In this document: positions 7,608-53,793 of the stretch, in pieces
Layout of the letters: each line of letters begins with the position of its first letter
How positions within the stretch are numbered: the first letter of the stretch is position 1
Position numbers and translations under genes: made by a program
Assembly: GCA_027687465.1 (NCBI GenBank)
Contig: JAQCQR010000001.1
Coordinates: 124,001-188,000 of the forward strand
Direction: 5' to 3'
DNA: 64,000 bases
Source: Coriobacteriaceae bacterium AF08-21
GTDB taxonomy: Bacteria; Actinomycetota; Coriobacteriia; Coriobacteriales; Coriobacteriaceae
The notes under the pieces: generated by a model
The model's input: the letters and a program-made list of their open reading frames with translations, nothing else
What the model was told of the DNA's origin: nothing
Database searches by the model: none

Positions 7608-8978
<1,371 letters not shown>

Positions 8979-9106: not shown

Positions 9107-10714
9107 TTACAGAAGACTCTCGAACTTCAGAAGACTCTCGAACTTCTCGCGAACCTGCGGGACGGTAAGGCCGATGATGACCTGGATTGACTGACCTTGG
9201 ACCACCAAGCCATGCGTACCGATCGCCTTGAAGGAAGCCTCGGGTGCAACGACGCTCTTGTCCTTGACGTTAACGCGCAGACGGGTAGCGCAGTTAGTTA
9301 CATCGATGATGTTATCCGTGCCACCGAGTAGATCGAGGATGTTCTCGGCAAGCACCAAGCGCTCATCATCTTTACTCTGGGCGACCGATTTGCCAGCAGC
9401 AGCGCCCTGCTTTTGCTTGTAGTCGGCCTTGGACTTGAGCTCGACCTCAACATCGTCATCCTCGCGACCGGGGGTCTTAAAGTCGAACTTGACGATCAGA
9501 AAACGGAAGACCACGACCCAAAGGGCGGTAAAGCACAGGCCGACAAGGATGGAGATGGTGTACTGCAGACCGTGTGCGGCCCAAAGGGGCAGCCAGTCCC
9601 ACGAGAGCATCGAGATGATGCCGCCGTCGAAGATGCCCACGACGCCAAGGAGGTTTTGAGCCATGCAGCCAAGCGCTCCGAGCACGCAGTGGACGACGAA
9701 CAGGCCGGGCGCGATGAACAGGAAGGTGAAGTCAAGCGGCTCGGTAATACCGCAAAGCATAGCGGTAAGGGTGACGGGGATGAGCAGAGCCTTGACGCGC
9801 TGCTTGCGCTCGGGCTTGGCGGTCATATAAAACGCAATGGCAACGCCAAGCGAGCCGAAGACTTTAGTCCATCCAGGGCAGGTATAGGCAGCCCAGGGTG
9901 CGGCATCCTTAAGAGCAATGCTCGGATCGGCAGCCAGTTGGGGCAGGATGTTAGCCCAAGCGGCAAAGATGCCGCCATTGACCGCCGCGTTGTCGTAATA
10001 GAACGGCGTATAGATAAAGTGGTGAAGGCCTGTAGGGATCAGCACGCGCTCGAAGAAAGCAAAGACGCCCACGCCAAACGTACCGGCGGAAAGGATGAAT
10101 CCCTGGAAGGCGGAGATAGCAGCCTGAACATGCGGCCACACCAGGCAGGCAATAAGAGCGACCGGAACCATAACGAAGAAACCGATCATATAAATGAACA
10201 CGGAGCCCGAGAACACGCCCAGCCACTCAGGAAGTTCGGTGTCGAAGAACTTGTTATGCAGCATCGTGGCGATACCAGAGATAATGAGCGCGCCCATGAT
10301 GCCCATGTCAAGCGTTTTGATGCTTGCGATAGTGGCAAGACCAGTACCGCTGCCCGCCTCGACAGAGTAGTCGACACCAAAGACAGGGCCCCACTGCCCC
10401 AAGATTGTGCTTACAAAGTAGTTGAAGGTAAGGTAGATGGCCAAAGTCTCCATGCAGCAGCGAGCGTTCTGCTTGTTCGCGAGCGAGATTGGCAACGCTA
10501 CGCAAAACAGCAACGGCATCTGGTTAAAGAGCGTCCAACCACCCTGGAGCAGCACATTCCAGCAATCAAACCAAAGATGACCCGCTGTGGCCATCTCGCC
10601 AAAGATCGCCTCGGTGGTAAACAACGTACCCAGGCCGACGACGATTCCGGAAAATGCGAAAAGAATTGCAGGCGTGTACATTGCACCGCCGAAACGTTGT
10701 ATCTTTTGCATCAT
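9107..10714 (-). CDS. PTS alpha-glucoside transporter, fused EIIC-EIIB
   Basis: This encodes about 535 residues from MMQKIQRFGGAMYTPAILFA. The ATG pair at 10711/10714 follows a GAGGGGG ribosome site at a slightly long spacing. The membrane EIIC domain (residues 1 to about 420) has about ten helices and the conserved ILIPTGLHHFIYTPFYY-type loop with LCGITEPLDF. A charged linker leads to EIIB, with the phosphorylated Cys in DVTNCATRLRV (about residue 472). It imports and phosphorylates alpha-glucosides for the adjacent GH4 enzyme. No EIIA domain is present, so a separate EIIA such as the crr-like gene at 38255 may serve it. The C-terminus carries an 18-bp tandem duplication. Confidence 0.9.
   Translation of the reverse strand: MMQKIQRFGGAMYTPAILFAFSGIVVGLGTLFTTEAIFGEMATAGHLWFDCWNVLLQGGWTLFNQMPLLFCVALPISLANKQNARCCMETLAIYLTFNYFVSTILGQWGPVFGVDYSVEAGSGTGLATIASIKTLDMGIMGALIISGIATMLHNKFFDTELPEWLGVFSGSVFIYMIGFFVMVPVALIACLVWPHVQAAISAFQGFILSAGTFGVGVFAFFERVLIPTGLHHFIYTPFYYDNAAVNGGIFAAWANILPQLAADPSIALKDAAPWAAYTCPGWTKVFGSLGVAIAFYMTAKPERKQRVKALLIPVTLTAMLCGITEPLDFTFLFIAPGLFVVHCVLGALGCMAQNLLGVVGIFDGGIISMLSWDWLPLWAAHGLQYTISILVGLCFTALWVVVFRFLIVKFDFKTPGREDDDVEVELKSKADYKQKQGAAAGKSVAQSKDDERLVLAENILDLLGGTDNIIDVTNCATRLRVNVKDKSVVAPEASFKAIGTHGLVVQGQSIQVIIGLTVPQVREKFESLLKFESLL
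9110..9145. repeat. 18-bp perfect tandem duplication at the 3' end of the PTS gene
   Basis: CAGAAGACTCTCGAACTT occurs twice back to back (9110-9127, 9128-9145). It adds a second KFESLL to the EIIB C-terminus, giving KFESLLKFESLL before the stop. Confidence 0.9.
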
Positions 10715-10858
10715 GACGGGGAATCCCCCTCTCTTCATTCGGAGCGCTGCGGTTTTGGCTTCACTCGAGACCGCAGACGCGCCGTTTGCGTGTACCTCGT
10801 GCAATAGGACGGGTGGGCCCGCTTCCCTGACTTCTTGCGCTTCTATTTTTATCATATC

Positions 10859-11019
10859 ACTTATCTAGACAAGTTAGTATAAATACTACGGTCGGTAAAC
10901 GGTTGATTATTGGCCGTAAACGGTATATGTCCAGTATTTCGCCTGCTAAATCTGATATAGGTGATAGCTGCAATTCATATTTCTTTTTTACTTGTCTAGA
11001 TATGCTTGTCTATATCTGC
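10859..11019. promoter_or_regulatory. Operator sites in the divergent PTS / dehydrogenase control region
   Basis: ACTTATCTAGACAAGT (10859-10874) is a nearly perfect palindrome. Related copies are ACTTGTCTAGATATGC (10990-11005) and GCTTGTCTATATCTGC (11004-11019). The CTTGTCTAGA-type site resembles operators of GntR/HutC-family sugar regulators such as TreR. The GntR gene two genes away at 12162 is the obvious candidate. A pair of GTAAACGG elements (10895-10902, 10915-10922) lies between and is unexplained. Confidence 0.65.
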
Positions 11020-11070
11020 AGACATACCTATACTTCATTACAACATTCACCACCACGTTAAGGAGTCACC

Positions 11071-12096
11071 ATGAAAAGCGCGGTCTTCTATGGAAAGCAC
11101 GATCTCAGGGTCGAGGATTCGACAAAGCCGGCGGTGGGCAAGCGCGACGTTCTGATCAACGTCAAGGCTTGCGGCGTCTGCGGTACCGACGTTCATATCT
11201 ATGAAGGCGACAAGGGTGCAGCCGACGTTACCCCGCCCACGATCCTTGGTCATGAGTTTGCGGGCGTTGTCGAGGCCGTGGGCAGCGACGTCGCTGGCTT
11301 TAAACCGGGCGATCGCGTGTGCATCGACCCAAACCATCCCTGCGGCTGCTGCGAACCCTGCCGCGACGGAATCAACCACTACTGCGAGCATATGACCGGT
11401 TACGGCACCACCGTTAACGGCGGCTTTGCCGAGTACTGCTCCGTCGATATGCAGCAAGTCTACAAGTTGGGCGATCACACCAGCTTTGAGCAGGGTGCTA
11501 TGACCGAGCCCGTCGCCTGCTGCCTGCACGGCATCGATATGTGCAACATCAAGCCCGGCAGCACGGTTGTCGTCATCGGCGGTGGCATGATCGGTCTGCT
11601 CATGATGCAGCTTGCCAAAAACGCCGGCGCCACCAAGGTTGTCTTGCTCGAGCCCGTCGAGGGCAAGCGCGAGGTTGCGCTCAAACTCGGCGCCGATCTG
11701 GCAATTGATTCCATCCACGAGGACGTCCCGGCCCGCCTGAAGCAGGAGGGCGTCGGCAACGTCGATGTCGTTATCGAGTGTGTTGGCAAGCCCGTCACCA
11801 TCGAGCAGGCCATCCAGATCGCCGGCCACAAGGCTACGGTCATGATGTTCGGCCTCACCAAGCCCGATGAGACAATCACCGTCAAGCCCTTCGAGGTCTT
11901 CCAGAAGGAGCTTGTGCTCACCTCGTCCTACATCAACCCTTATACGCAGCGTCGCGCGCTCGAGCTCATCGACTCGGGCAGGATCGACGTTTCCTCGATG
12001 GTCGCAAAAGTGGCCTCCCTCGACGAACTCGGCGCCATCCTGTCAGACCCGGCCCTGCGTGCCATGGGTAAATATATAATCGACCCCAGCAAGTAA
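11071..12096 (+). CDS. Zinc-dependent medium-chain dehydrogenase (sorbitol dehydrogenase-like)
   Basis: This encodes 341 residues and starts after AAGGAG. The catalytic zinc ligands are Cys in ACGVCGTDVHIYEG and His-Glu in GHEFAGVVEAVG. The structural zinc lobe is CGCCEPCRDGINHYC. The Rossmann motif is VVVIGGGMIGLL. Such enzymes oxidise polyols or secondary alcohols with NAD(P). It is divergent from the alpha-glucoside PTS gene across shared operators and followed 65 bp later by a GntR regulator, so it belongs to the same regulon. That context suggests action on a sugar or sugar-alcohol product, but the substrate cannot be named from sequence. Confidence 0.85.
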   Translation: MKSAVFYGKHDLRVEDSTKPAVGKRDVLINVKACGVCGTDVHIYEGDKGAADVTPPTILGHEFAGVVEAVGSDVAGFKPGDRVCIDPNHPCGCCEPCRDGINHYCEHMTGYGTTVNGGFAEYCSVDMQQVYKLGDHTSFEQGAMTEPVACCLHGIDMCNIKPGSTVVVIGGGMIGLLMMQLAKNAGATKVVLLEPVEGKREVALKLGADLAIDSIHEDVPARLKQEGVGNVDVVIECVGKPVTIEQAIQIAGHKATVMMFGLTKPDETITVKPFEVFQKELVLTSSYINPYTQRRALELIDSGRIDVSSMVAKVASLDELGAILSDPALRAMGKYIIDPSK

Positions 12097-33773: not shown

Positions 33774-33807
33774 ACGGGTGCCCAAGTACTTCGGGCGCCC
33801 GTTTTTT
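33774..33807 (+). terminator. Terminator of yhbY
   Basis: ACGGGTGCCC (33774-33783) pairs with GGGCGCCCGT (33793-33802), followed by T6. It abuts the convergent regulator gene stop. Confidence 0.85.
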
Positions 33808-36805
33808 ATCGCTCGACCAGCACGCGATTGAGCCGCCCCTCCACCAAGCGCTCGTATAGACGCCGCGTCTCGGGCTCGGGCACGCCATTGACCTGCTCCC
33901 TCAGATGGTGCATATGCCCACTGTATAGCTCGACGATATCGCGCCTCCGCCCCGCCGCACTGTAGACACGCATGGCGCAGCGCACCATATCCTCACGCGC
34001 CGTTTCCTGTCGAAGACCCGACTCCGCCAGCCAAATCGCCGACTGCAGATCGTTTTCTTCTAGAGCGGCATTTGCTCCCTTAATCATGCAATCGATGTAC
34101 TTTGACTGCATAATGCGTCGCATACGCAAAAAGTAGGTGGGATTACAGCCATTGGGAACATACAGCGGTCCGGCATAAAGCTGCTCAATCTTAAGGCACA
34201 GCTCAACTAAATGGGGCCCGCGCGCACCCGTGCGATTTCCCAAAACCTCGCGGCTTATCTGGTCAAACAGCCGTACATCGGTCTTGACGTAGTCGCCGTT
34301 GAGTCCGATGCATTCATTTTGGATGAGCACACACGACTTGCCATCCGGCGTCGGTCCCAAAGCCGACCGCAAGCGCGATATCGTCGAGTACAGGTTATTG
34401 CGGGCGCTATTGAACTCGGCATGGGGCCACAGCTCCATGGCCAGCGTCTCACGATCGACGAGCGCATCCATGCCCAGTGCAAGCCGCTCGGCAAGTGTCG
34501 CCGCCTTCTTGCGGCGCCACATTTTGTCCGTGATGGGAAACCCGTCGCGCTCGGCGCGAAACGCACCAAACATGCGAATCTCGATATGGTCGATGGTATC
34601 AACGGCTTCAACCTCGCCGGCCTGGAACAGGCGCTCGCCCTCCCCTTCCAAATCGTCGCGCAGCGAGTACCGCGACAGCTCGCGCACGGGAAGCTTCTTG
34701 CGTATCCTGGCCGCCGGCTCGCCCAGACAATGCATGGCAAGGCGCGCAAAGAGCCGATACGATGGCTCTAGAATCCCCGCACGATTCATGGACATCCAGG
34801 CCGCAAGGTCGCTGTCTCGGCCCGCACAGGCCAAATGCAGCGCCACCATCCAGGCTTCTGCGCCACCAACCTGCGTCTGGCTTATATCGAGTAGCTCCGC
34901 TTCCTCGCGCACCGAAACCATCGAGGTGTTACGCAGATATGCCGCGCGCTCCAGCAGCAATGCGTTATCGCGCATATACGCAATCGACTCCTCGGCAAGT
35001 TTGAGCACTTGGACCGCACGGAACTTTGCATTAACCGGCCGTCCCTCTGCCAGCGACTGCCAGCCTTCTAGCAACAGGCCAAACAGCTGAATCTGGTTGT
35101 CGCGCATGCGCACGGCAAAACGATCGAGCTCGTTGAACGCCGCGTCGTCGGTTACCGGCAAGCCGGAAAGGAGCCGCCGTGCCGCCAACACCATGCGCAC
35201 CCAGATAGCCATCGCCTTAAGCCCGCGTACGTCGAGCGCCTCCCGCACCACCGTCATCTCGTCGTCGCGCTCGTCGGTTCCCGCAAACGACCCGTCAAAG
35301 AGCTCCACCAGCATGCTATCGGCCCGTATAACAATCCCCGCGATGTCGAGCTCGCAATCGTAGGCCTTGCTCGTTTTGAGCTGCTGTAGAACGCCGCCGT
35401 CATCTCCCCGTTCGGTCAGGCATCGCTTGACCTCGATATGCGCAGACAACATATCGAGTGCGGTATGGGATGTCTCGATTTCTGGCACGGCCAGGTTCAT
35501 AGGGAGCCCAAGCCCGTTGTCCCCATAGCAAACAGCCGTCAGTGTCTGGGCCACCCTCCATGAAACAGGGTCTATTTCGCAGGCCGCCCGTTCGCCCCCG
35601 CGCTCGATAACCGATGCCATATAGCGAGCGAGCTTTGTATTGGACACGCTGACCGCTGCCAGATATACGCCAAGCGCCTCGGCAGGCGTTGGCTCTGGAG
35701 CCGAATCGTCGGCATCGATCGTGCCCAGCGCCGCTCGGCAGATATCGGCCCCGTGCCCCGTCAGAGCCAGATCGACCCCATACTGCCCAGCAAGTTCAAG
35801 GACCGCATCACGGTCCAAAAAGGCGTCCGCCAGGCCCATCGCCGCATCGCATCTACCCGCCTTAAGCAAAATCCGGGCCGCCCTCGGAACAAGTTCGGGG
35901 CGAACCTCGGCCACCAACTTACGCAAACGCAAGCGTCCGTTATCCTCCGTGCCCAGACACGTAAAACTCCGCTCGGCGGGATCCAAGCCAAAGATCGGGT
36001 AGTCGCGTACAAAGTAGGACTGGTCGACCATCGACAGCCTCACCCCGCAAGCCTCGAGTTCCGCGATATTGCCCTCGCCCATCAAAACCATGAGACATGC
36101 CACGCAAAACAGCGCATTATTGTCGAGCGAAGCCAGATCGACAAGTGCCGCGCCATATACGTTGACAATCTCGTTTTCGAGCAGACCGGCTACGTCGCCT
36201 TGGCCATACAGACCCGTCTGCAATGCCGAAACGAGCTCGGGCACGCCCTGCGTGAGCTGATAAAAGTCGAGCGATGTGCTGATCGAAAACGCCGATGCCC
36301 ACGCCGAATACTCATAGGCATGCACCTTGAGCATCTGCGCATTGATCTTAACCGAATCGCCCAGCCCATGAATCAGCTGACGATTTGAAGGACGACAGGA
36401 GATAAAGACCCCTATCCCCATAGCGCGCAGGCCGCGAATCCTGTCGATGAGGTCTTCGGTATCGTGCTGATCGAGGTTTGGCACATTATCAATCGCGATA
36501 AGGGAGTGCGGTTTGTCTTTGAGTTCTTCGGTAACCACCTCGAGCTGCATAAACACCTCGCGCCCAATGGCGCGATCGGCCTCGATAATCCGCACGGGGC
36601 CTCGCGTCGGGTCGCATTTAACCTCATGGGTGTACTGCAGCAGCACCGAGGTCTTCCCAAACCCGTCGGGCGCATAAAGAACCACGATGCCGGCCTTTCG
36701 GCCCTTGGCGATAAGCTCATTCATCAAGCGTTCGCGTCGCACCATATAGCCTCCGCCCAGCGGCATCAGCTCGAGGTCGCCTATACCGCTCAAATCGTTT
36801 ACCAT
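33806..36805 (-). CDS. Large AAA-ATPase transcriptional regulator with C-terminal SARP/BTAD DNA-binding module
   Basis: This encodes 999 residues from the ATG at 36805 (GAGGAGC upstream). An N-terminal MalT/STAND-like NTPase has Walker A in VVLYAPDGFGKTSVLLQYTH and Walker B in SLIAIDNVPNLDQ. A long helical TPR-like middle follows (about 250-720). Then comes an OmpR-type winged helix (RMFGAFRAERDGFPITDKMW, about 755-850) and a bacterial transcriptional activator domain (VRLFDQISREVLGNRTGARG, about 860-990). AfsR-type SARPs usually carry the winged helix and BTAD at the N-terminus, so the order is reversed here. No co-transcribed target is adjacent, so its regulon is unknown. Confidence 0.85.
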   Translation of the reverse strand: MVNDLSGIGDLELMPLGGGYMVRRERLMNELIAKGRKAGIVVLYAPDGFGKTSVLLQYTHEVKCDPTRGPVRIIEADRAIGREVFMQLEVVTEELKDKPHSLIAIDNVPNLDQHDTEDLIDRIRGLRAMGIGVFISCRPSNRQLIHGLGDSVKINAQMLKVHAYEYSAWASAFSISTSLDFYQLTQGVPELVSALQTGLYGQGDVAGLLENEIVNVYGAALVDLASLDNNALFCVACLMVLMGEGNIAELEACGVRLSMVDQSYFVRDYPIFGLDPAERSFTCLGTEDNGRLRLRKLVAEVRPELVPRAARILLKAGRCDAAMGLADAFLDRDAVLELAGQYGVDLALTGHGADICRAALGTIDADDSAPEPTPAEALGVYLAAVSVSNTKLARYMASVIERGGERAACEIDPVSWRVAQTLTAVCYGDNGLGLPMNLAVPEIETSHTALDMLSAHIEVKRCLTERGDDGGVLQQLKTSKAYDCELDIAGIVIRADSMLVELFDGSFAGTDERDDEMTVVREALDVRGLKAMAIWVRMVLAARRLLSGLPVTDDAAFNELDRFAVRMRDNQIQLFGLLLEGWQSLAEGRPVNAKFRAVQVLKLAEESIAYMRDNALLLERAAYLRNTSMVSVREEAELLDISQTQVGGAEAWMVALHLACAGRDSDLAAWMSMNRAGILEPSYRLFARLAMHCLGEPAARIRKKLPVRELSRYSLRDDLEGEGERLFQAGEVEAVDTIDHIEIRMFGAFRAERDGFPITDKMWRRKKAATLAERLALGMDALVDRETLAMELWPHAEFNSARNNLYSTISRLRSALGPTPDGKSCVLIQNECIGLNGDYVKTDVRLFDQISREVLGNRTGARGPHLVELCLKIEQLYAGPLYVPNGCNPTYFLRMRRIMQSKYIDCMIKGANAALEENDLQSAIWLAESGLRQETAREDMVRCAMRVYSAAGRRRDIVELYSGHMHHLREQVNGVPEPETRRLYERLVEGRLNRVLVER

Positions 36806-45468: not shown

Positions 45469-45918
45469 TCAGCCCTCCGTCACCTCTCGCCAGACGGTTT
45501 CGGTTCCGACAGCCCCCGGCTCCCAGACGTTGTTAGCAACGAGGGATTCCCAGACCTTGCCGTTATGGCGCACGACAGCGCCCTTCGGGTAAGGGTTCTC
45601 GTTGCTCGGCGGCACCCACTCGGGAATGCTCGACGGGTCATCACCGCCACTTGCATACTCAACGACCTTCGCCCAAAGGCTCGGAGCTGCCGTGGGCGAC
45701 CAATCGGGTTGCGACGTGTGCGCCTGAAGGCATACGTAAAGAACTCCCTCGTAACTCACGCGCTCGCCCTCTGCGTAGGCGTGGCCGTCCCCGTCCCACT
45801 CCGCGAAAAGCACGGAGCACTTGGCCGCAACGTCCGACGATAGGGACGGGGCTTGCGCCTTGAAGATTGCGATGATCGCGCGAACCATGCCCTCTTCGTC
45901 TTCGGTAAGTGCCATCAT
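45469..45918 (-). CDS. Phage protein with two carbohydrate-binding (CBM5/12-like) modules
   Basis: This encodes 149 residues with a start at 45918 or 45915 (AAAGGGGAA). After a short helix, two similar modules follow. One is YAEGERVSYEGVLYVCLQAH ending SLWAKV. The other is YPKGAVVRHNGKVWESLVAN ending WREV. Both match the Trp-rich chitin/cellulose-binding CBM5/12 pattern used by phage tail or lysis proteins to hold glycans. It is the first gene after the DGR terminator, so it belongs to the lysis transcript. Glycan specificity is unknown. Confidence 0.75.
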   Translation of the reverse strand: MMALTEDEEGMVRAIIAIFKAQAPSLSSDVAAKCSVLFAEWDGDGHAYAEGERVSYEGVLYVCLQAHTSQPDWSPTAAPSLWAKVVEYASGGDDPSSIPEWVPPSNENPYPKGAVVRHNGKVWESLVANNVWEPGAVGTETVWREVTEG

Positions 45919-45942
45919 TTCCCCTTTCTCTCGGTAACAAAA

Positions 45943-45966
45943 AAGCCCCCGCTAGTGCGAGGGCTT
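45943..45966 (-). terminator. Terminator at the end of the DGR transcript
   Basis: On the reverse strand AAGCCCTCGC pairs with GCGGGGGCTT (one mismatch) and is followed by T6. It separates the reverse transcriptase from the lysis genes. Confidence 0.88.
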
Positions 45967-45990
45967 GGGTGCCTAATTTCGTGTTTCCTT

Positions 45991-47100
45991 TTAGCCGAAA
46001 AGCTCCTTATAGAGCGCGTCCATGCGTTTTACCGTCTCGTGCGCGTTCAGGCGCTTCATGCTGCCGCGCCATGACTGGTAGGATTGGTTGACCTGCTCGA
46101 CGGTCATAACCCCTTTGGCGACCAACGCGGCTTGCTTCTTCAACTTGCGCCGCTGTCGCGTCACGGAGGAACGGCACGGGCGAACAACCACTTTTCCGCC
46201 CTCGCCATACGAAAACCTCTTCTTAAGGAACGTGAATCCGCGCGTGAGCTTCACAACGCGCGTCTTCTTGCGGTTGATGATGATTCCCAGATCGTCGCAG
46301 AGCGATTCGATGAGCGAAAACGCGTCCCAAAGCGTCTGCTTGTCAAGAGCGATGCAATAGCTATCGTCCATGTAGCGCCCGCTCGCCAAGATGCCCGGAA
46401 GGGACAGCATCAGATGGTCAACCGGAGACGGTAGGGCGACCGCTAGAATCTGATTCGGCTCGCTGCCAAGACCCAAGCCGCGCGCTCCGTGAGCGTCTAT
46501 CTGGTCTGCCATGACGCGCTTAACCCGCTCATCGTCAATGGCGCGGTCGATAAGGCGCTTGCAAGCGTCGTGGTCGATGTTTGCGAAGTAGTCCGCGAAA
46601 TCGACCTGCAAGATGTAGCCTTCCGTTCCGTGCTTTCGGTGGTGCTCGACAAGCTGGCGCTTCATCCGGCGAATCGCGTAGTCGGTTCCGCGCCCCTTGA
46701 CGTTCGCGGCGCATCCTTCGGTGAGGGTAGGCCAGATCGCGGGAGCGAGGGCGTGACGGCTCAAAGACTTCTGTATCACGCGCTCCGAGAAGTGCACAGA
46801 GCAGATGTGGCGAAGCTTGCCGCGCTCGAACAAGTCGAACTCGATGAAGCCGCGCCGGAAGTCGGCGCCCGTGAGAAGGTCGCGGCGCGCCCTCATGATG
46901 TTTGGAACGACGCGCGCCATGTAGCGCTGCACGCTCGATTTCCAGCGAACGCCAGCGGCAGCGCCGTTGGCGGCATCGTATAGGTTATCGAGGTCGGCGA
47001 CGGCTTCCAGCGTGCATCCCTCGATGCGCCTAGCCCGATTCTCCGCGCGCTTGGCATCGCGCCTTGCGCGTCGCGCAGCCCTGCGCTCTTCAGAGTTCAT
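45991..47100 (-). CDS. DGR reverse transcriptase
   Basis: This encodes 369 residues. An Arg-rich N-terminus (RRAARRARRDAKRAENRARR) precedes RT motifs. These are the template-binding KLRHICSVHFSERVIQKSLS, motif A with catalytic Asp (ILQVDFADYFANIDHDACKR), the DGR-type motif LGLGSEPNQILA (GxxxNQ where most DGR enzymes have GxxxSQ), and motif C GRYMDDSYCIAL (YMDD). KKTRVVKLTRGFTFLKKRF follows as the thumb. There is no maturase or endonuclease domain. It copies the TR RNA into adenine-mutated cDNA that replaces the VR. It is preceded by the TR and avd gene in the classic order. The start codon has only a weak ribosome site. Confidence 0.95.
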   Translation of the reverse strand: MNSEERRAARRARRDAKRAENRARRIEGCTLEAVADLDNLYDAANGAAAGVRWKSSVQRYMARVVPNIMRARRDLLTGADFRRGFIEFDLFERGKLRHICSVHFSERVIQKSLSRHALAPAIWPTLTEGCAANVKGRGTDYAIRRMKRQLVEHHRKHGTEGYILQVDFADYFANIDHDACKRLIDRAIDDERVKRVMADQIDAHGARGLGLGSEPNQILAVALPSPVDHLMLSLPGILASGRYMDDSYCIALDKQTLWDAFSLIESLCDDLGIIINRKKTRVVKLTRGFTFLKKRFSYGEGGKVVVRPCRSSVTRQRRKLKKQAALVAKGVMTVEQVNQSYQSWRGSMKRLNAHETVKRMDALYKELFG

Positions 47101-47311
47101 GAGGGCACCCCGCGCGGCTCACAACCGGCATCCAGCAGCCGCTTGACGGTTGACCATGAAACGCGGTCGGAAGCCGAGAACCGCGCCATGCAAGCAGCGA
47201 ACGGCAACCGTCGCGGGGTGCATATTTACGGGCTTGCGCCCGACGGTCGCCCCTTCCTTCCTCAAATGCACGGCGCGCGGCGCTTATGGCCGCACGGTCT
47301 GGCAAGGCTTG

Positions 47312-47440
47312 GGAATCACGGCAGGGGGCGTATCCAGTCGTTCGTCGGGGCATTGTTGTTGGCATTGCCGTTGCTGTTGACATTGCACGCGTTGGACGAA
47401 GACCCGCCCATGACGGAGCGCAGCCACCAATTGACGCGAT
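47312..47440 (-). repeat. DGR template repeat (TR)
   Basis: This 129-bp repeat aligns without gaps to the VR at 48009-48137. The two differ at 14 positions, every one an adenine in the coding-strand TR. Ten AAY codons and one AGC lie at positions matching VR codons. Read in the VR frame it would encode WWLRSVMGGSSSNACNVNSN and then GNANNNAPTNDWIRPLP followed by TGA. It lies 28 bp downstream of avd. The 211-bp spacer to the RT gene is GC-rich noncoding DNA that probably forms the 3' part of the template RNA needed for priming. Confidence 0.96.
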
Positions 47441-47468
47441 GATTTCCAAGGGACAACGCGCGACCATC

Positions 47469-47879
47469 TTACCCCTTCCCAATGAGCTTCACGCCCGCGC
47501 GAGCACCCTTTATCAGCTTTATGTCGCTCTCTATGCTCTCTGATATCGCTTCGAACCGCGCGACCTTCACCGGCAGATTCATAGCCATAAGGCATTGCAG
47601 GTCTTGGTATAGCTGCTGCAAGTCCGCTATCGCAAGCGTCATGTAATGCTTGCGCTCTTCGACGTTGCGAGCCGTGTTCGGGTAGAAGGCATCAGCCTTA
47701 ACCAGATTGAACACCAAGCTTCGCGCCGTCTCCGCCATGGGGACGGCGAGGATGAAGCGATAAGACTTCGGCACCGCCGACGAAGCCACAAGACGCGTCA
47801 CGTCGTTTCGAATCGAAACAGCAGTGTTGAAATACTCGAACGAGCTTAGGTTGCGGTTCCGCACATATACGCCGCTCAA
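47469..47879 (-). CDS. avd: DGR accessory variability determinant (Avd-like four-helix protein)
   Basis: This encodes 136 residues, basic and all-helical. The sequence follows the Avd/four-helix-bundle pattern: SSFEYFNTAVSIRNDVTRLV, PKSYRFILAVPMAETARSLV, ERKHYMTLAIADLQQLYQDL and a final helix. In the Bordetella phage system Avd forms a positively charged pentameric barrel that binds the RT and template RNA. It lies between the target gene and TR, as in that system. The TTG at 47879 is the only start before an upstream stop, and a GGAGGGG site lies 11 nt away. A GTG at 47864 is an alternative. Confidence 0.9.
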   Translation of the reverse strand: MSGVYVRNRNLSSFEYFNTAVSIRNDVTRLVASSAVPKSYRFILAVPMAETARSLVFNLVKADAFYPNTARNVEERKHYMTLAIADLQQLYQDLQCLMAMNLPVKVARFEAISESIESDIKLIKGARAGVKLIGKG

Positions 47880-47986
47880 TTTTCAACATCCCCCCCTCCG
47901 TGATTTTTGAAAATTGCTTCGCCCGCGCTTCGCGCGGGGACGCAAAGGCGCATGCGCAAGGCATGCGCCAGACCAGTACCTAGTAC

Positions 47987-48003
47987 GGCTGATTTTATCA
48001 GCC
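47987..48003 (-). other. DGR hairpin/cruciform just downstream of the VR
   Basis: GGCTGAT-AAA-ATCAGCC on the coding strand is a perfect 7-bp stem with a tiny loop, starting 5 nt after the VR ends and overlapping the target gene stop codon. In the Bordetella phage DGR, a similarly placed hairpin is needed for efficient retrohoming. Confidence 0.8.
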
Positions 48004-48900
48004 TAGGAGGAAGCACGGCAGGGGGCGTATCCAGTCGCTCGTCGGGGCAAGGTGGTTGGCATAGCCGTGGCCGATGACAGAGCACGCGTTGGACGAAGAC
48101 CCGCCCATGACGGAGCGCAGCCACCAAGCGACGCGACCGCCCGCGATGCGGCTTGCGGTGTCAGTGAAGATGGGGAACTGGCTATCGAAGCCTACAGAGT
48201 AGCCCTTGCTTCCCCAGACCGGGCACCCGTAAACCTCCATCTCTGAGGGCGACCAAATCTTGCCCAAGTCTGCCCAGCTCCAACCGCTCGCTTCTGTGAG
48301 ATTTCCCGAAGACGAATATCGCTCTTCGAGAAGCACGCGCTGCGAGAGAATGGCGCTCTGAAGCGCAGTCGGCAGCGCTGGCAGGAAGTCGTTGATTTCC
48401 CAGTCGTGCAGCTTCGAAACCAAGTAAGGGTGCTTTTCCTCGGCGGTACCGTTGTTGTCGTTCGTATCTCGCCACTGAAGGTAGCTGGTGTTTGATGCCT
48501 TGTCTCCGGTGACGCTCACGGGCGCGAGCGGCACCATGACGATATGGTGCCCCTTGGCGGTGTCGCCGCAGTTGTAATACTGGTCGATTGCTCCGATTCG
48601 GTAGCGCACCGTCTGCGCGGGGACGTTAGCGCCCGCCGTGATGGGCACGTCTATATAGTCGCCGATGCGCAGACCGGCGAAGTTGGCGTTTCGCGCGCGG
48701 TTGCGAAGCCACGTGTAAATGTCGGTGCTCCCGATCTCGTTTGCGAAGACCGAAGCGAGCGAGCGCCCAGCGTAAGAGTTTGTGTTGTGCTGTCGGTCGT
48801 ATTCCTCGGCAGTCGTTACGGCGTTCGCCGTGTTGCGCGCAGAAGAATCCTTCAGATTGTAGGCGGTTCCGCCGATAGAGAACTTCGACAAGTCGGCCAT
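47998..48900 (-). CDS. DGR target: phage tail-tip protein with C-terminal variable lectin-like domain
   Basis: This encodes 300 residues (GGAG upstream). A short N-terminal attachment segment (MADLSKFSIGGTAYNLKDSS) leads to a formylglycine-enzyme/C-type-lectin-like fold. Conserved features are LRIGDYIDVPI, WSPSEMEVYG, AWWLRSVMGG and the closing WIRPLP. The C-terminal 43 residues are the VR. Residues differing from the template are A258, S274, I276, G277, H278, Y280, H283, L284 and S288. N271 and N282 are also encoded by mutable AAC codons. It lies 15 bp downstream of the BppU-like shaft gene, so it is probably the receptor-binding tip. The ligand is unknown. Confidence 0.93.
   Translation of the reverse strand: MADLSKFSIGGTAYNLKDSSARNTANAVTTAEEYDRQHNTNSYAGRSLASVFANEIGSTDIYTWLRNRARNANFAGLRIGDYIDVPITAGANVPAQTVRYRIGAIDQYYNCGDTAKGHHIVMVPLAPVSVTGDKASNTSYLQWRDTNDNNGTAEEKHPYLVSKLHDWEINDFLPALPTALQSAILSQRVLLEERYSSSGNLTEASGWSWADLGKIWSPSEMEVYGCPVWGSKGYSVGFDSQFPIFTDTASRIAGGRVAWWLRSVMGGSSSNACSVIGHGYANHLAPTSDWIRPLPCFLLG
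48009..48137 (-). repeat. DGR variable repeat (VR)
   Basis: This is the copy of the TR at the 3' end of the target gene. Its last 24 or so coding bases are GC-rich and identical to the TR apart from one A/C difference, fitting the initiation-of-mutagenic-homology segment. Thirteen upstream substitutions fall in codons such as AAT to GCT, TCT, TAT or CTT and AAC to CAC, ATC or AGC. NNY codons can never be stops, so diversification preserves the frame. Confidence 0.96.
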
Positions 48901-48915
48901 TGCTTTTCTCCTTCC

Positions 48916-49917
48916 TTAGTTGAGCGTCGCCGTCTCGCCGCTCACGGTCGCCTGAGCGACGGTTACGGTCTCGCTAGAAAGTGCGGTGCGTCTGTTGGTG
49001 GGCATGTACGCCGTTTCGCCAAGGACTATGTAGCCGTCCTGTAGCTCCACAAGCGCCGTCGCAAGCGTCGCGTTCTCTTCGCGCAGCTCTTGCACCTCGT
49101 CATCTGAGGGCGGCTCGATAGAAGCAATAGAGTTTGCGATGTTAAGCGCGTTCTGCGCAGCGGCGGTGGCATCCTCCGCCGCGCCGTTTGCCGCAGCAGC
49201 GGCGGCGTTGGCGCTTGAAGCGGCTGTGTTCGCCGCGCTCGCGGCGGCGTTGGCGTTGGATGCTGCCGCGTCGGCGTTCTGCTTCGCGGTGTTGGCGGCT
49301 GATGCCGCGTTGTTTGCAGCCGTGGTTGCAGCGTCGGCGTTCTGCTTGGCGGTGTTCGCCGCCGAAGCTGCGCTTGTCGCCGCCGCTGCGGCATCGTTTG
49401 CAGCCTTCGCGGCGTTGGTCGCGCTCGTAGCAGCCGAGTTCGCCTTGCTCGCGGCGCTGTTCGCCGCGCTGGCCGCGCTGTTTGCTGAGCTTACGGCTTG
49501 ATTGCCACGGTCGATGAGGTCTTGCACGGCATCGTCCCAGTTCTGCGCGGGCTGCTGCCCGTCAAGAGCGCTGCGCAGGATTTCGATTGCGAAGCGCTCC
49601 GTCGAATAGGTCTTGCCGCTCTTCGTGATCGTGAAATAGGCTTCGTCGGTGTAGCCGGACACGCTGCAAAGCTTGGATTCGTCAACCGTGATCGTGGCGG
49701 CGTTACCGCTCACCGAGCACTGGCCGCGATAGTAGTTGCGCTTGTTCGGCAAAAGCACCACGAGCCATGCCGTAGCGCCCGAAAGCGCGAACTCAGCGCC
49801 GTTGTCGTAGATAAGCGCCTTGATGGTGGTTCCGCCATCGTCGCCCTGACCCACCTTGACGCAGGCTCCCGTTCCCTCCTTCGAGATATCGAGTTCGAGC
49901 GTTCGCGTGTTGCTCAT
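48916..49917 (-). CDS. BppU-like baseplate/receptor-binding shaft protein with Ala-rich coiled coil
   Basis: This encodes 333 residues. The N-terminal 120 or so residues are beta-rich, like the baseplate upper protein N-domain (ELDISKEGTGACVKVGQGDD, TAWLVVLLPNKRNYYRGQCS). Residues about 140-260 are a long Ala/Asn/Ser heptad repeat (AASAANTAKQNADAATTAAN), a trimeric coiled-coil fibre. A second helical segment and a short beta tail end the protein. The ATG overlaps the previous stop (ATGA). The DGR target follows after 15 bp. It probably carries the variable tip protein on the tail. Confidence 0.85.
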   Translation of the reverse strand: MSNTRTLELDISKEGTGACVKVGQGDDGGTTIKALIYDNGAEFALSGATAWLVVLLPNKRNYYRGQCSVSGNAATITVDESKLCSVSGYTDEAYFTITKSGKTYSTERFAIEILRSALDGQQPAQNWDDAVQDLIDRGNQAVSSANSAASAANSAASKANSAATSATNAAKAANDAAAAATSAASAANTAKQNADAATTAANNAASAANTAKQNADAAASNANAAASAANTAASSANAAAAAANGAAEDATAAAQNALNIANSIASIEPPSDDEVQELREENATLATALVELQDGYIVLGETAYMPTNRRTALSSETVTVAQATVSGETATLN

Positions 49918-50099
49918 TGCTCGCCGCCTTCCTCGACCGATATATTGCTTATTCCTTGAATGACAGTAAGCGCCTGAGAAACAAGTTCCGCAAGCCGCTG
50001 AACGGCGGCGTTTGTATCAATGACTGCTTCACGCAGCCCGTATTCCTGAGAAGGCTCGCTCATGACGGGCTTTTCATTGATTGGCTCGTTCATATTCAT
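49914..50099 (-). CDS. Small phage protein between tail-associated and shaft genes
   Basis: This encodes 61 residues from the ATG at 50099, which overlaps the preceding stop as TGATG. Its own stop overlaps the next start as ATGA. The sequence is MNMNEPINEKPVMSEPSQEY followed by a helix (NAAVQRLAELVSQALTVIQG). There is no recognised domain. Tight coupling on both sides supports a real gene, perhaps a baseplate or chaperone component. Confidence 0.7.
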   Translation of the reverse strand: MNMNEPINEKPVMSEPSQEYGLREAVIDTNAAVQRLAELVSQALTVIQGISNISVEEGGEQ

Positions 50100-53065
50100 C
50101 AACTCCAAACCAGGTTTTCATGGAACTGCCCGTTTAGCCATCCGAAACCGTTGCTCCCACATCTGCACTGAACGCCGTCGCTGGTGATGCGCACGTAATG
50201 CGTTCTGTCAAACTGAATAACCACATCGTTAGCGTCAAAGAACAATCCTCGTTGGCCAAACCCACCGCCAAGCAGGTTCACGTACCAATCGCTTCCCGAT
50301 CTCATTGAAAGGCGCTCGTTCGAGTTCGACATGAACCCGTCAACCTCGGGGGTTTCGAGCACGACCTGCCTGTAGTACGTGCTCGCATCTAGAAACGCCT
50401 TATTAAACGTCTCGAAACCGACACCGTTTATAGTGCCGGACGGAGAATCGACAGCATGAATAGACGCGATGTTCAGATAGTTGTTATTTCTCGTGAAAAA
50501 GCTTGCTCCCGTGTAGTTGTCAGAGGTCGTGCCAACGTTTACGTACGTCCCAGAGTTACGCGTGGTTTCTATCCTGTCGGTCGATATGGTGTTCGCACGG
50601 ATGTACTCGCCGTTGATGTAAATAAGGCCGTTTGACAGGTAGATTCCCTGTGTCTTGCCGTTGTTGGTCAGACGGTTGAAAACGTCTCTCTGCGTGAGCG
50701 ATGCATCCAGATCGTCCGTTGACTGGTTGCCGGACGTGAGGGCACGAGCCAAAACGGGCGTTGTGTATGTCACTGTTCCGTCTGACCATGTTATAGCGCT
50801 CCGCGTCCAGTAGTAACGGCCTGAAACCCACGCGGGCTGGTAGTATTGCCAGCTACCGCCCGTCTGTGTGCTGCTGCTCGTGCTCAGATAGTATTGCTCG
50901 CGCACCTGAGACACGCCGATGCCGTCAGTATCGGCCATGCGCCGTGCTGATGTGTACTCTGTTGTTCCATCGGCGAGCGTGAGCTTTAGGCGCGTCCATA
51001 GGTACTGCCCCTGCTTCCAGTTCGCGTAGGTTGTCCACGTGGTCGGCGCTGTCGATGAGCTAGAAGAGTTTCCATATTGCACATCAACGGCGGTTACCGT
51101 CTTGCCCGCCGTGCCGTCCCCAACCGTGGCGTCGCCGGAAAGCGCGAACTCGCCGGTTGTCAAATCCCAGTAGTTCTTTCCCGCCTTGTCGGCGATGATG
51201 CCAGCGGTCAGCAGGTCGGCGTCGAGAACGCCTGTGTCGATATAGGTTCCGTTGATGTAAACCTTGCCGTCCTTCAGGTAGATACCCTGAACCTGACCGT
51301 TGTTCGTGAGACGGTCGAAGATGCTCTTCTGACCGAGGGATTCGTTGAGAGCGTCAACGTAGAATTGCGCCTGCTTCTTTGCGTCGGTTCCTGCCGATGC
51401 AGCCTGCTCCGATGCGTACTTCTTCGCTTCTTCCAAGCGTTTAGCGTCCGCCTGCTCAGCCGCTTCGACAGCAGCCTTCTGCGCTTCGCTCGCGGCATCG
51501 CTCGCGATTTGATCCACCGTCTCGCCATCAACTGTCGCCGAAGCGGAAAGCGCGAACTCGCCGTTGGTCAAATCCCAGTAGTTGTTTCCCTTCTCGTCGG
51601 TGAGCAGACCGGCGCGCACGCGGTCGGCCTTCATGGTGCCAGCGTTGATAACATCGGCAGTCACCATGCCGCCCGTGAAGAACGTTCGCCAATCCCATTG
51701 ACCGTCTGACGTAAGGCCAGCGGCCAACCGCTGACCGCGCCCGTTGACGTTGATAGCCCACATGTCGGCGGTAGCCTTGACCGGCAAACCCGTTTCGGGG
51801 TTCAGCGGTACGTTGCTCCAGATCTCGCCAAGCTCGAACGTCTCGACATGGTAGGTGCCAACCGCGTTGAACTGAGCGTTGAGCGCTTGCTGAAGCTGAA
51901 TGAGCCACGATACCGACGTGCCAGCCGCCGCGTCGTAGAGCGCGTTTTGCTTGCTGTTGCTCTTAAGCGCGTTGTTAACACTCGCCCACATGTCGGCCAT
52001 CGTGTCCGTAAGCGTGCCGAACGTAACGGTAGCATCGCCGGTGAGCAAGTCGCGCTCAATCTGAGACACGCGGCCATGAAGGCGCACGCCCTCGGCAGAA
52101 AATCCCTTGTCGATGATCGCCACGTCATCGCCAACGCCCACGCCCTCCCACGAGCGCCCGAACGCGTATAGGTCGATAACGGAAGCGGTGTAGGTTACTT
52201 TCGGCTCCTTCACCTGCTCTAGGTAGTCTTGCGTTTCCCGCAAGAGCTGCGCCGCGTCCTCGCACTGCTCGTTGACGTAGGCCGCTACTGCGGGCAGAAT
52301 GCCGCCCTCGCCGTCAGGGTGCCCCCAAACGGCGGTGGCTTCGGCATCCTCCACGTAGTCTTTTCCGTCGTTGATATCGCCGAAGGTAAGGCGGCGACCG
52401 TAGCCGCCGCCCTCAGTCTCAACGCCTTTGCCGTAGCCGTAAACGCGCGTCTTCGGGTTGTCGCTCGCAACCGAGCGCTTGACGGAAACGAGGTCTTTAG
52501 TCCATGTGAACCGCTTAGCGCTGCTCTGGTTGCCGCGCTTCGCGCGCACGCCAACGCGACGGCTAACGATGCTCGAGCCGTCGTGGACGATGAGCGTTTC
52601 AAGCTCGCCGCCCCACGTCTCGATGATTCCGGCCAAGCCCTCGCGCACGCTCTCATGGTAGAAGGTGCGCGAAGCGCTGCCGCCCTGATCGCACGTGCCA
52701 ACCTCCCAGCGCGTGTCTGCGAGAATGGACGTGAGGGCTACCGACACTCCGCCAGAAGGCCGCTTATCGTCCAACCAGTCGTCCCACGTCTCGTTAACCG
52801 AGTTGATGCAAACGGCTTGCGTCTCTGGCGCGCCGTCATCGTCGTGTACGCGGTCGATGGTGTCCACGATGTGTTCGTGGCACACGCTATGAAGGTCAAT
52901 CCAAACTACGCGGTCGCCCTTCACGAGGTCTTCGGAGCACGTGATCTTCAGCTCGTCCGTCCCGTCAAGAGCGTCCGTGTGCGTTGCTTCGCTTACCGTG
53001 AGCCTGCCTAGGTTGTCGCCCCACCTGCTGAACCGGGTGAAGCCTATTCGTCTGATTAAAGCCAT
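50099..53065 (-). CDS. Phage tail-associated (Tal-like) minor structural protein
   Basis: This encodes 988 residues from the ATG at 53065 (GGTGGAGAG upstream). The N-terminal 350 or so residues match the gp27/Tal-type hub (LTVSEATHTDALDGTDELKI, VSQIERDLLTGDATVTFGTL). The C-terminal half has duplicated modules. NYWDLTNGEFALSASATV (about 491) recurs as NYWDLTTGEFALSGDATV (about 627). FDRLTNNGQVQGIYLKDGKV (about 581) recurs as FNRLTNNGKTQGIYLSNGLI (about 791). An Ala/Glu-rich coiled coil lies at about 520-575. It caps the tail tube and connects to the receptor-binding proteins. Confidence 0.88.
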   Translation of the reverse strand: MALIRRIGFTRFSRWGDNLGRLTVSEATHTDALDGTDELKITCSEDLVKGDRVVWIDLHSVCHEHIVDTIDRVHDDDGAPETQAVCINSVNETWDDWLDDKRPSGGVSVALTSILADTRWEVGTCDQGGSASRTFYHESVREGLAGIIETWGGELETLIVHDGSSIVSRRVGVRAKRGNQSSAKRFTWTKDLVSVKRSVASDNPKTRVYGYGKGVETEGGGYGRRLTFGDINDGKDYVEDAEATAVWGHPDGEGGILPAVAAYVNEQCEDAAQLLRETQDYLEQVKEPKVTYTASVIDLYAFGRSWEGVGVGDDVAIIDKGFSAEGVRLHGRVSQIERDLLTGDATVTFGTLTDTMADMWASVNNALKSNSKQNALYDAAAGTSVSWLIQLQQALNAQFNAVGTYHVETFELGEIWSNVPLNPETGLPVKATADMWAINVNGRGQRLAAGLTSDGQWDWRTFFTGGMVTADVINAGTMKADRVRAGLLTDEKGNNYWDLTNGEFALSASATVDGETVDQIASDAASEAQKAAVEAAEQADAKRLEEAKKYASEQAASAGTDAKKQAQFYVDALNESLGQKSIFDRLTNNGQVQGIYLKDGKVYINGTYIDTGVLDADLLTAGIIADKAGKNYWDLTTGEFALSGDATVGDGTAGKTVTAVDVQYGNSSSSSTAPTTWTTYANWKQGQYLWTRLKLTLADGTTEYTSARRMADTDGIGVSQVREQYYLSTSSSTQTGGSWQYYQPAWVSGRYYWTRSAITWSDGTVTYTTPVLARALTSGNQSTDDLDASLTQRDVFNRLTNNGKTQGIYLSNGLIYINGEYIRANTISTDRIETTRNSGTYVNVGTTSDNYTGASFFTRNNNYLNIASIHAVDSPSGTINGVGFETFNKAFLDASTYYRQVVLETPEVDGFMSNSNERLSMRSGSDWYVNLLGGGFGQRGLFFDANDVVIQFDRTHYVRITSDGVQCRCGSNGFGWLNGQFHENLVWS

Positions 53066-53793
53066 CTCTCCACCCACTCAAGAATCGCTGTGCCGTTGGT
53101 GATGTTCAGGTGGCAGCGCCCGTTTATCTCGAAGTAATCCGAGTCAATCGTTACCGGTGCGGTCTGGTTGTTGACCGTTGCTCGCTCGGTCGCCATGTCA
53201 AGCCGTATGGTGCTCGAAGACGTGAGCGCGGTGTTGATAGCCACGAACTCGCCGGTATCGACGTTCGTAATCCGCCACGTGCTTCCAGCGGCGGGCTTCG
53301 CCGTTACCTTCAGATGTGCGGGTCGGTTTCCTCCGGCGTTGACGTAGACGTTGCCCGCCAAAACCTCCATGCGGCGCTTCTGGCCGTAATAGTCGGGGTC
53401 GCCGATGTGGAACGTAACGGTGGTTGTCGGGCAATCGTCCGTGATCTCGTCTAGGTCGGTGCTTCCGCTCACGATTGCGAGCAGGTAGCGCGTCGGGTCA
53501 TCGGGAAGGTAGAGCGGCGCGGGTTCGTCAGTCCAGAGAGCCGCCGCGAGCCTGTGCCGCATCTCCGCGACCTCGCGGCGGTCTTCAGTCCTAAGCCAAA
53601 TCTCAACGGGAAGGTCGTAGCCGCCACGGTAGGCGCTCTTGAAGACCTCGCCGTGCCGCCCCGGCACGCTCTCGAACGTCGCGTTGACGGTCGCCATGAT
53701 GGGGCGGCGCACCTTGCAGTAGACCAGCTTCGACAGGTCGGTGCCGTTGAATATGATTCGGTCGTGCTGGTTCCTAGTCCGTCTAAGTTGCAA
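53056..53793 (-). CDS. Distal tail protein (Dit family)
   Basis: This encodes 245 residues. A TTG start at 53793 is supported by AAGGGGGG and an 11-nt overlap with the tape measure stop. Siphovirus Dit-like features include IIFNGTDLSKLVYCKVRRPI, SVPGRHGEVFKSAYRGGYDL, and ELRHRLAAALWTDEP-type and ITDDCPTTTVTFHIGDPDYY segments. It forms the hexameric hub between tail tube and baseplate. It overlaps the start of the next gene by 10 nt. Confidence 0.87.
   Translation of the reverse strand: MQLRRTRNQHDRIIFNGTDLSKLVYCKVRRPIMATVNATFESVPGRHGEVFKSAYRGGYDLPVEIWLRTEDRREVAEMRHRLAAALWTDEPAPLYLPDDPTRYLLAIVSGSTDLDEITDDCPTTTVTFHIGDPDYYGQKRRMEVLAGNVYVNAGGNRPAHLKVTAKPAAGSTWRITNVDTGEFVAINTALTSSSTIRLDMATERATVNNQTAPVTIDSDYFEINGRCHLNITNGTAILEWVERWL

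What the first reader, a model, noticed from the sequence alone, without database searches (positions are those of the whole stretch)
45991..48900. Complete diversity-generating retroelement in a Coriobacteriia (probably Collinsella) prophage
All parts are visible: target gene with 3' VR, post-VR hairpin, Avd-like gene, TR and YMDD reverse transcriptase in the Bordetella-phage order. TR (47312-47440) and VR (48009-48137) align over 129 bp without gaps. All 14 differences are adenines in the coding-strand TR, with no other base changed. Eight of ten TR AAY codons differ in the VR. Ten AAY codons alone allow 16^10 (about 10^12) nucleotide combinations with no stop codons. This is the strongest unusual system in the window and the VR appears to have been mutagenised already.
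Basis: partly seen in the sequence, partly recalled or inferred. Interest (0 to 1): 0.95.

Follow-up and report, generated by a model that had tools for sequence, protein, structure and literature searches.

The report
Diversity-generating retroelement in Collinsella prophage
A virus dormant in a gut bacterium carries an intact-looking machine that rewrites the tip of its own tail protein; such machines are known, but this one uses an RNA whose role the RNA database does not state and which may hold the template in place for copying.

Summary
On the minus strand of a Collinsella siphophage prophage lie, in BPP-1 order, a DUF6273 gene with a 3' variable repeat, a hairpin, Avd, the template repeat and a reverse transcriptase (RT). 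The repeats align over 129 nt; all 14 differences are at template adenines. Two need correction: 47440 lies on the 5' edge, and 47316 (TR A, VR C) is a fixed mark seen in 19 of 20 loci, the window included. Across those loci 233 of 491 template adenines but 4 of 1959 other bases differ, and non-adenine changes are shared by TR and VR, so VR is repeatedly overwritten. DGRs in this bacterial class and DUF6273 targets are published.

Unexpected: the TR-RT spacer is Rfam RT-2 RNA (RF03077), where BPP-1 has Phage_DGR RNA. In 396 genomes all 22 RT-2 hits precede an RT and 21 have a TR/VR pair. The TR tail just 3' of the mark is complementary to, and covaries with, an RT-2 segment usually followed by GGA: a possible docking helix that sets where copying starts. 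In the window it has only 4 pairs.

The parts
47998..48900 (-). target gene, 300 aa, DUF6273 domain, in the tail-tip gene region
   Evidence: Pfam PF19789 E 9.6e-10, 39 bits over cut-off 23.5; 21 of 22 family members match it; AlphaFold model mean pLDDT 79.8
48009..48137 (-). variable repeat (VR) at the 3' end of the target gene
48013..48013 (-). fixed C of the A/C mark (IMH side)
47987..48003 (-). inverted repeat GGCTGAT-AAA-ATCAGCC right after VR; contains the TGA stop codon of the target gene
   Evidence: energy z -3.25, 1 of 200 shuffles as good; comparison in 20 loci
47469..47879 (-). Avd homologue, 136 aa, TTG start, four-helix bundle model
47312..47440 (-). template repeat (TR)
47316..47316 (-). 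fixed A of the A/C mark (IMH* side); in frame it makes TGA
47085..47307 (-). RT-2 RNA (Rfam RF03077), structured spacer between TR and RT, runs 16 nt into the RT gene
   Evidence: 96 bits, cut-off 40, E 4.3e-23, full length 1-222; covariation
47258..47261 (-). proposed docking site GGAA for the TR tail TTCC (47312-47315); 4 pairs only in this window
47255..47255 (-). adenine of the GGA that follows the docking site: proposed priming nucleotide (inference)
   Evidence: for the place; analogy to BPP-1 (A56 recalled)
45991..47100 (-). reverse transcriptase, 369 aa, YMDD
   Evidence: PF00078 2.2e-8, phrog_1423 6.8e-62; family profile matches the BPP-1 DGR RT 8ub7_A at 6.2e-35, best of 16
48916..49917 (-). 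neighbouring gene with BppU_N domain (context)

Best explanation
A complete phage diversity-generating retroelement that diversifies the C-terminal part of a tail-tip protein by mutagenic retrohoming. Proposed cycle: the TR-spacer transcript folds its spacer (RT-2 RNA) into a scaffold for RT and Avd (inferred from BPP-1); the TR tail just 3' of the A/C mark pairs with a spacer segment that is usually followed by GGA (supported by covariation across the family; only 4 pairs in this window); RT starts a cDNA next to that helix, probably primed by a spacer adenine (inferred), so the mark itself is not carried into VR (shown by its fixity); RT misreads template adenines (shown by the near A-only changes); the cDNA replaces VR between the A/C mark and the short homology at the 5' edge (shown by shared non-adenine changes up to about 3 nt from the mark); the hairpin after VR helps target recognition (inferred). 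New tail tips let the phage bind other receptors (inferred).
For: A-only TR/VR differences, p 2e-11; 233 of 491 A versus 4 of 1959 non-A in 20 loci including the window and 808 of 1724 versus 13 of 4530 in 59 loci found through the RNA pattern (one of them, L054, is the contig of L001), with control templates C 0, G 0, T 1 pairs against A 59 of 80; VR follows its own TR at 8070 of 8348 ordered non-A comparisons; RT profile closest to the BPP-1 DGR RT; Avd fold and phrog_3206; hairpin; RT-2 RNA in place, with covariation; all 22 genome RT-2 hits beside an RT, 21 with TR/VR; AAC codons become mostly Tyr (TAC 32) and Ser (AGC 25) of 137, the leading two outcomes reported for the BPP-1 RT in E. 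coli (PMC12875486, passages).
Confidence: 0.96

Rival explanations
1. The cassette is a DGR that is no longer active in this prophage; VR is a frozen record of past homing.
For: Decayed cassettes exist in the family: L048 lacks most of Avd, the TR and most of the RT; L042 has TR and VR with non-adenine differences. No activity data here.
Against: RT, Avd, TR, RT-2 RNA, mark and hairpin are all present and readable; 0 of 97 non-adenine bases differ between TR and VR in the window's 123-nt core, so little drift has built up since the last homing.
Confidence: 0.12
2. The RT belongs to another class (group II intron, retron, DRT defence) and the repeats are an ordinary duplication.
For: NCBIfam best hit is the group II intron maturase model (57 bits against a cut-off of 300); 34 PADLOC families match weakly to moderately, best a generic RT model at 3.9e-17.
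Against: All four NCBIfam hits are far under cut-off; the profile's best solved match is the BPP-1 DGR RT; A-only differences do not come from ordinary duplication.
Confidence: 0.01
3. For the RNA: RT-2 is not part of the DGR mechanism but a leader or regulator of the RT gene that happens to sit there.
For: Rfam's table calls it only 'RT-2 RNA; Gene; sRNA', and it overlaps the RT start codon. One pattern locus, L109, shows neither RT nor TR/VR.
Against: It begins 7-11 nt after the A/C mark in the loci compared, 19 nt in L039; BPP-1 has its DGR RNA at the same place; the TR tail covaries with it.
Confidence: 0.06

Closest known systems
Bordetella phage BPP-1 DGR (mtd-avd-TR-brt)
   Same: gene order, A-specific mutagenesis, Avd fold, RT relationship, structured RNA between TR and RT
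   Different: target is DUF6273, not Mtd; spacer is RF03077, not RF03022; a single A/C mark instead of five IMH mismatches (PMC3240598 passages); hairpin loop AAA instead of GRNA
Eggerthella lenta prophage DGRs (mtd-avd-TR-ert; PMC8778435, passages)
   Same: same bacterial class, same order, TR of 130 bp in one clade; VR substitutions at 10 sites were seen among chemostat isolates of DSM2243
   Different: not compared by sequence here; the passages seen do not mention an RNA between TR and RT
Roseburia phage Shimadzu DGR (L049)
   Same: annotated tail fibre, Avd, RT; RT 47% identical; A-biased TR/VR, A/C mark and RT-2 RNA at 144.9 bits
   Different: other host phylum (host genus by name); a second target is reported for it (PMC11792537 passage), none found here
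Faecalibacterium phage Pioen and other DUF6273 DGR targets (PMC11792537, PMC10743442, passages)
   Same: DUF6273 target; in Pioen, Roos, Lelie and CP11 the VR maps to the C-terminus of DUF6273; Pioen has RT-2 RNA at 175.1 bits
   Different: Pioen RT only 31% identical
Rfam RT-2 RNA (RF03077)
   Same: full-length match
   Different: no DGR label in the Rfam table; the TR-tail docking lies outside the model

Membership tests
Diversity-generating retroelement | TR and VR repeats whose differences fall on TR adenines | tested here: met
Diversity-generating retroelement | RT of the DGR group next to the TR | tested here: met
   best solved relative is the BPP-1 DGR RT, 6.2e-35, next 1.9e-12; YMDD present
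Diversity-generating retroelement | RT motif (I/L/V)GxxxSQ (recalled) | tested here: inconclusive
   window LGSEPNQ; relatives vary between NQ and SQ
Diversity-generating retroelement | Avd or equivalent accessory protein | tested here: met
   place and fold; 7 of 19 family members match phrog_3206; the window protein itself has no hit at 0.001 in Pfam, PHROGs or NCBIfam
Diversity-generating retroelement | IMH/IMH* difference at the 3' end that is not transferred | tested here: met
   A/C mark in 19 of 20 loci; in the 59 pattern pairs A/C in 41 of 44 readable, 15 unreadable
Diversity-generating retroelement | inverted repeat just after VR | tested here: met
   short (4 pairs) in L004, L039, L041, not found by the script in L049, only a distant one in L005
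Diversity-generating retroelement | retrohoming activity | not testable with these tools
   needs reads or cultures; concerted TR/VR change shows past activity only
BPP-1-type phage DGR RNA (Rfam RF03022 Phage_DGR) | covariance model match in the spacer | tested here: not met
   no RF03022 match at E up to 1 in window 45900-49000; BPP-1 itself matches at 104.7 bits
BPP-1-type target hairpin | 4-nt GRNA loop | tested here: not met
   loop AAA; L004 and L039 have GATA and GACA
RT-2 RNA (Rfam RF03077) | score above gathering cut-off, full length | tested here: met
   96 bits over 40, positions 1-222
DUF6273 | Pfam score above cut-off | tested here: met
   39 over 23.5 bits
C-type lectin fold | structural match | tested here: inconclusive
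   [not shown]

The most novel reading that the evidence does not exclude
Rfam RT-2 RNA is the template-holding and priming RNA of a second large DGR lineage: the TR tail, starting one base 3' of a near-universal A(TR)/C(VR) mark, docks by base pairing onto an RT-2 segment followed by GGA; the helix end defines the first copied base, the GGA adenine is the primer, and the single A/C difference gives homing its direction. This gives a role to an RNA family whose role Rfam's table does not state, and a one-base definition of IMH.
Probability: 0.6. Interest if true: 0.68.

Novelty: new member of a known kind. Interest (0 to 1): 0.5.

Why it matters
The cassette adds a well-preserved DGR from Collinsella prophages; a prophage about 91% identical in its late genes sits in a Gordonibacter, a different family, in keeping with a tail that can change its receptor. 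The wider gain is mechanistic: an RNA family whose Rfam name says only 'RT-2' can be tied to DGRs by searches that use the RNA alone, and the covarying TR tail suggests where the template is held and why the 3' boundary of homing is so sharp. Both can be tested at once by mapping cDNA ends.

Tried and rejected
Second VR: the TR finds only its VR in the window (other hits are 10-13 nt). In 43 genus genomes, 8 have matches: TR/VR pairs at the cassettes, the lone VR of the decayed cassette in G010, and one 41-bp match at E 9.5e-4 in G028. The window ends inside the prophage, so a distant second target is not excluded. Second RT in the window: none (next hit E 0.012). Sequence search of Avd and target against PDB: nothing meaningful. 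PDB Foldseek for the target: one match under E 0.01. TGA at the mark as a universal stop signal: rejected, since the L034 group and many pattern loci have GGA/GGC instead; the A/C difference is what is kept.

Against a universal rule: three phage DGR loci (L058, L062, L063) have neither RT-2 nor the A/C mark, and L044 and L047 lack RT-2; 12 of the 25 RT-bearing genomes are not among the RT-2 genomes (their RT matches are at most 38% identical, or a remnant in G010). So RT-2 marks one lineage, not DGRs at large.

Print: four papers hold 'diversity-generating retroelement' and 'Collinsella', two were listed, neither on this subject by title; no paper holds 'candidate structured RNAs', 'RT-2' and 'reverse transcriptase'; of 30 papers, 15 were listed, none on RT-2 by title. 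The library is open-licence only; three papers asked for by DOI are not held, so a published link between RT-2 and DGRs cannot be excluded. What I recall of BPP-1 A56 comes from no call.

Rows dropped before counts: one search used 20 of the 24 non-duplicate loci with a pair (L044-L047, distant, left out; the minus-strand cassette of L029 and L038 duplicate L003 and L004; L042 and L048 gave no pair in that scan). The 8070 of 8348 are ordered comparisons, not independent. Searches used 59 of 60 rows (20 core, 39 pattern loci; L128 dropped because the script mis-set its mark). In the test of tail bases 5-8 the site was chosen with the locus's own tail, which favours the observed value; the test of mean run length has no such bias. 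The pair test allowed three non-adenine breaks, that one.
Full report
Observation. The cassette lies on the minus strand: target 48900-47998, hairpin, Avd 47879-47469, TR 47440-47312, RT 47100-45991. TR and VR differ at 14 of 129 positions, all at template adenines (28 of 129), p = 2e-11. Eight of ten AAY codons differ. The order is that of BPP-1 as annotated.

Two of the 14 differences are not clean evidence of mutagenesis. The one at 47440 is the outermost base. The one at 47316 (TR A) against 48013 (VR C) recurs as A/C in 19 of 20 loci, the window among them (the exception L040 has C in both). A mutagenised base would vary among G, C, T and A; this one does not. It is the IMH*/IMH difference. 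Between the two lie 123 nt with 12 of 26 adenines changed and 0 of 97 others.

Relatives. RT relatives were found, with overlap between searches, in IMG/VR (2 loci), GTDB genomes (3 loci), 60 phage records, 10 of 58 related genomes, 9 of 43 genus genomes and 25 of 296 class genomes. In 20 aligned cassettes TR adenines differ at 233 of 491 and other bases at 4 of 1959. Where the TRs of two loci differ at non-adenine bases, VR carries its own TR's base in 8070 of 8348 ordered comparisons; between the window and L001, 7 of 7 TR differences are mirrored in VR. VR is therefore repeatedly overwritten from its own TR. The mirrored changes include the base 3 nt before the mark (G in some loci, C in others, in TR and VR alike), so the transferred stretch ends within about 3 nt of the mark. 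AAC codons end as TAC 32, AGC 25, unchanged 21 of 137; no stop codon among AAY products.

Context. TerL, portal, protease, capsid, tail tube, tape measure, Dit, tail-tip protein, BppU-type gene, then the cassette, a CBM5/12 gene, a weak Rz-like spanin match, holin and endolysin. The late genes are about 91% identical (95% over one 1-kb piece) to a prophage in Gordonibacter An230 (19693 bases of window 42000-64000 aligned) and 90-91% (98% over the last 446 bases) to one in C. aerofaciens (19477).

The spacer RNA. 211 nt lie between TR and RT. The 182 nt after the mark are strongly conserved (48 invariant columns in 20 loci) and fold with covariation: 96.3% of cells paired, score 0.336 against 0.122 for shuffles (0 of 500 reach it) and at most 0.074 when slid (the structure was derived from the same alignment). 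cmscan identifies Rfam RT-2 RNA, full length, 96 bits. Of the relatives scanned, 13 of 13 and 9 of 12 (not L044, L047, L048) have it, as do 4 of 7 phage DGR loci (not L058, L062, L063). BPP-1 has RF03022 Phage_DGR RNA at that place.

Those loci were found by their RT. Two searches that use the RNA alone were made. Under a stricter test, templates other than A give C 0, G 0, T 1 pairs against A 59 of 80. The 80 form 67 clusters at 95% identity and 47 at 80%. A covariance search of 396 class genomes gave 22 hits in 19 genomes, none in 14 control genomes; all 22 precede an RT, 21 have an A-specific pair, the last (L193, same place as L042) has a degenerate one. Many of the 19 genomes had also come up in the RT searches.

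The mark and the docking helix. In the 59 pattern pairs, 44 gave a readable 3' mark: A/C in 41, C/T in 2, A/T in 1; 15 gave none. The mark mostly sits in G-A-TT (TR) against G-C-TT (VR); by the window's frame it is the third base of TGA/TGC or, in others, GGA/GGC, and in the latter it would be silent, so the protein does not explain it (frames of the other loci were not checked one by one). BPP-1 has a different first mismatch, C/A at TR 120. The TR tail starting at mark+1 is complementary to a spacer stretch: mean longest Watson-Crick run 5.97 over 37 distinct tails, against 3.99 (sd 0.17, highest of 2000 shuffles 4.57) with other loci's spacers; tails begun 3 to 8 bases later give 4.3 down to 3.0. 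Tail bases 5-8 pair in 69% against 33% (highest shuffle 47%), a test that favours the observed value because sites were chosen with the own tail. The partner is followed by GGA in 48 and GGG in 5 of 59. In 25 of 37 the helix has 5 or more pairs, and in only 1 of these would the mark base pair too, so the helix ends at the mark. The TR tail lies outside the Rfam model. In BPP-1 the longest TR-tail pairing, G-U allowed, is TR123-129 with Sp48-54 (no significance test), two bases before A56, which I recall as its priming nucleotide; PMC12875486 (passage) states that an internal spacer adenine primes. By analogy the GGA adenine is a candidate primer. In the window the helix has four pairs only.

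Assessment. The DGR is a new member of a known kind; Coriobacteriia prophage DGRs with evidence of activity are in print (PMC8778435, passages), and more than 30,000 DGRs have been catalogued (PMC8144416, abstract and passages). The assignment of RT-2 RNA and the docking helix are what may be new; I could not exclude that others have noted them, since the papers I looked for are not held.

Noticed in passing
L029 3465-6419 (+) and 12023-14930 (-): One C. aerofaciens contig carries two complete DGR cassettes in convergent orientation, the RT genes 5.6 kb apart (58% and 97% RT identity to the window).
   Followed up: partly
L048 5907-6311: Decayed cassette: the reading frame runs from the first half of Avd straight into the last quarter of the RT, with the TR gone; the target gene is still open and its VR differs from a relative's TR at 14 places, 13 of them adenines, one of which is the A/C mark.
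   Followed up: partly
L042 (G234): TR and VR differ at several non-adenine bases (A>C 5, others 7) and the TR has few AAC codons, as if the TR itself had been mutagenised; Avd looks shortened.
   Followed up: partly
L109: RT-2 core pattern without a detected RT or TR/VR although 6.2 kb of downstream DNA is held.
   Followed up: no
window 42783-64000 versus L050/L051: Late genes about 91% identical to a prophage of Gordonibacter, a different bacterial family.
   Followed up: yes
window 49936-51487: No alignment here with either of the two related prophages although both flanks align: the C-terminal part of the tail-tip gene 50099-53077 looks like a second, non-DGR variable region of the tail.
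   Followed up: no
window 33806-36805: Large host-type protein with a BTAD domain over cut-off and a STAND NTPase match under cut-off.
   Followed up: no
L004 about 10641-11104: Direct repeat of about 217 nt at a spacing of 246 nt.
   Followed up: no
[not shown]
   Followed up: no
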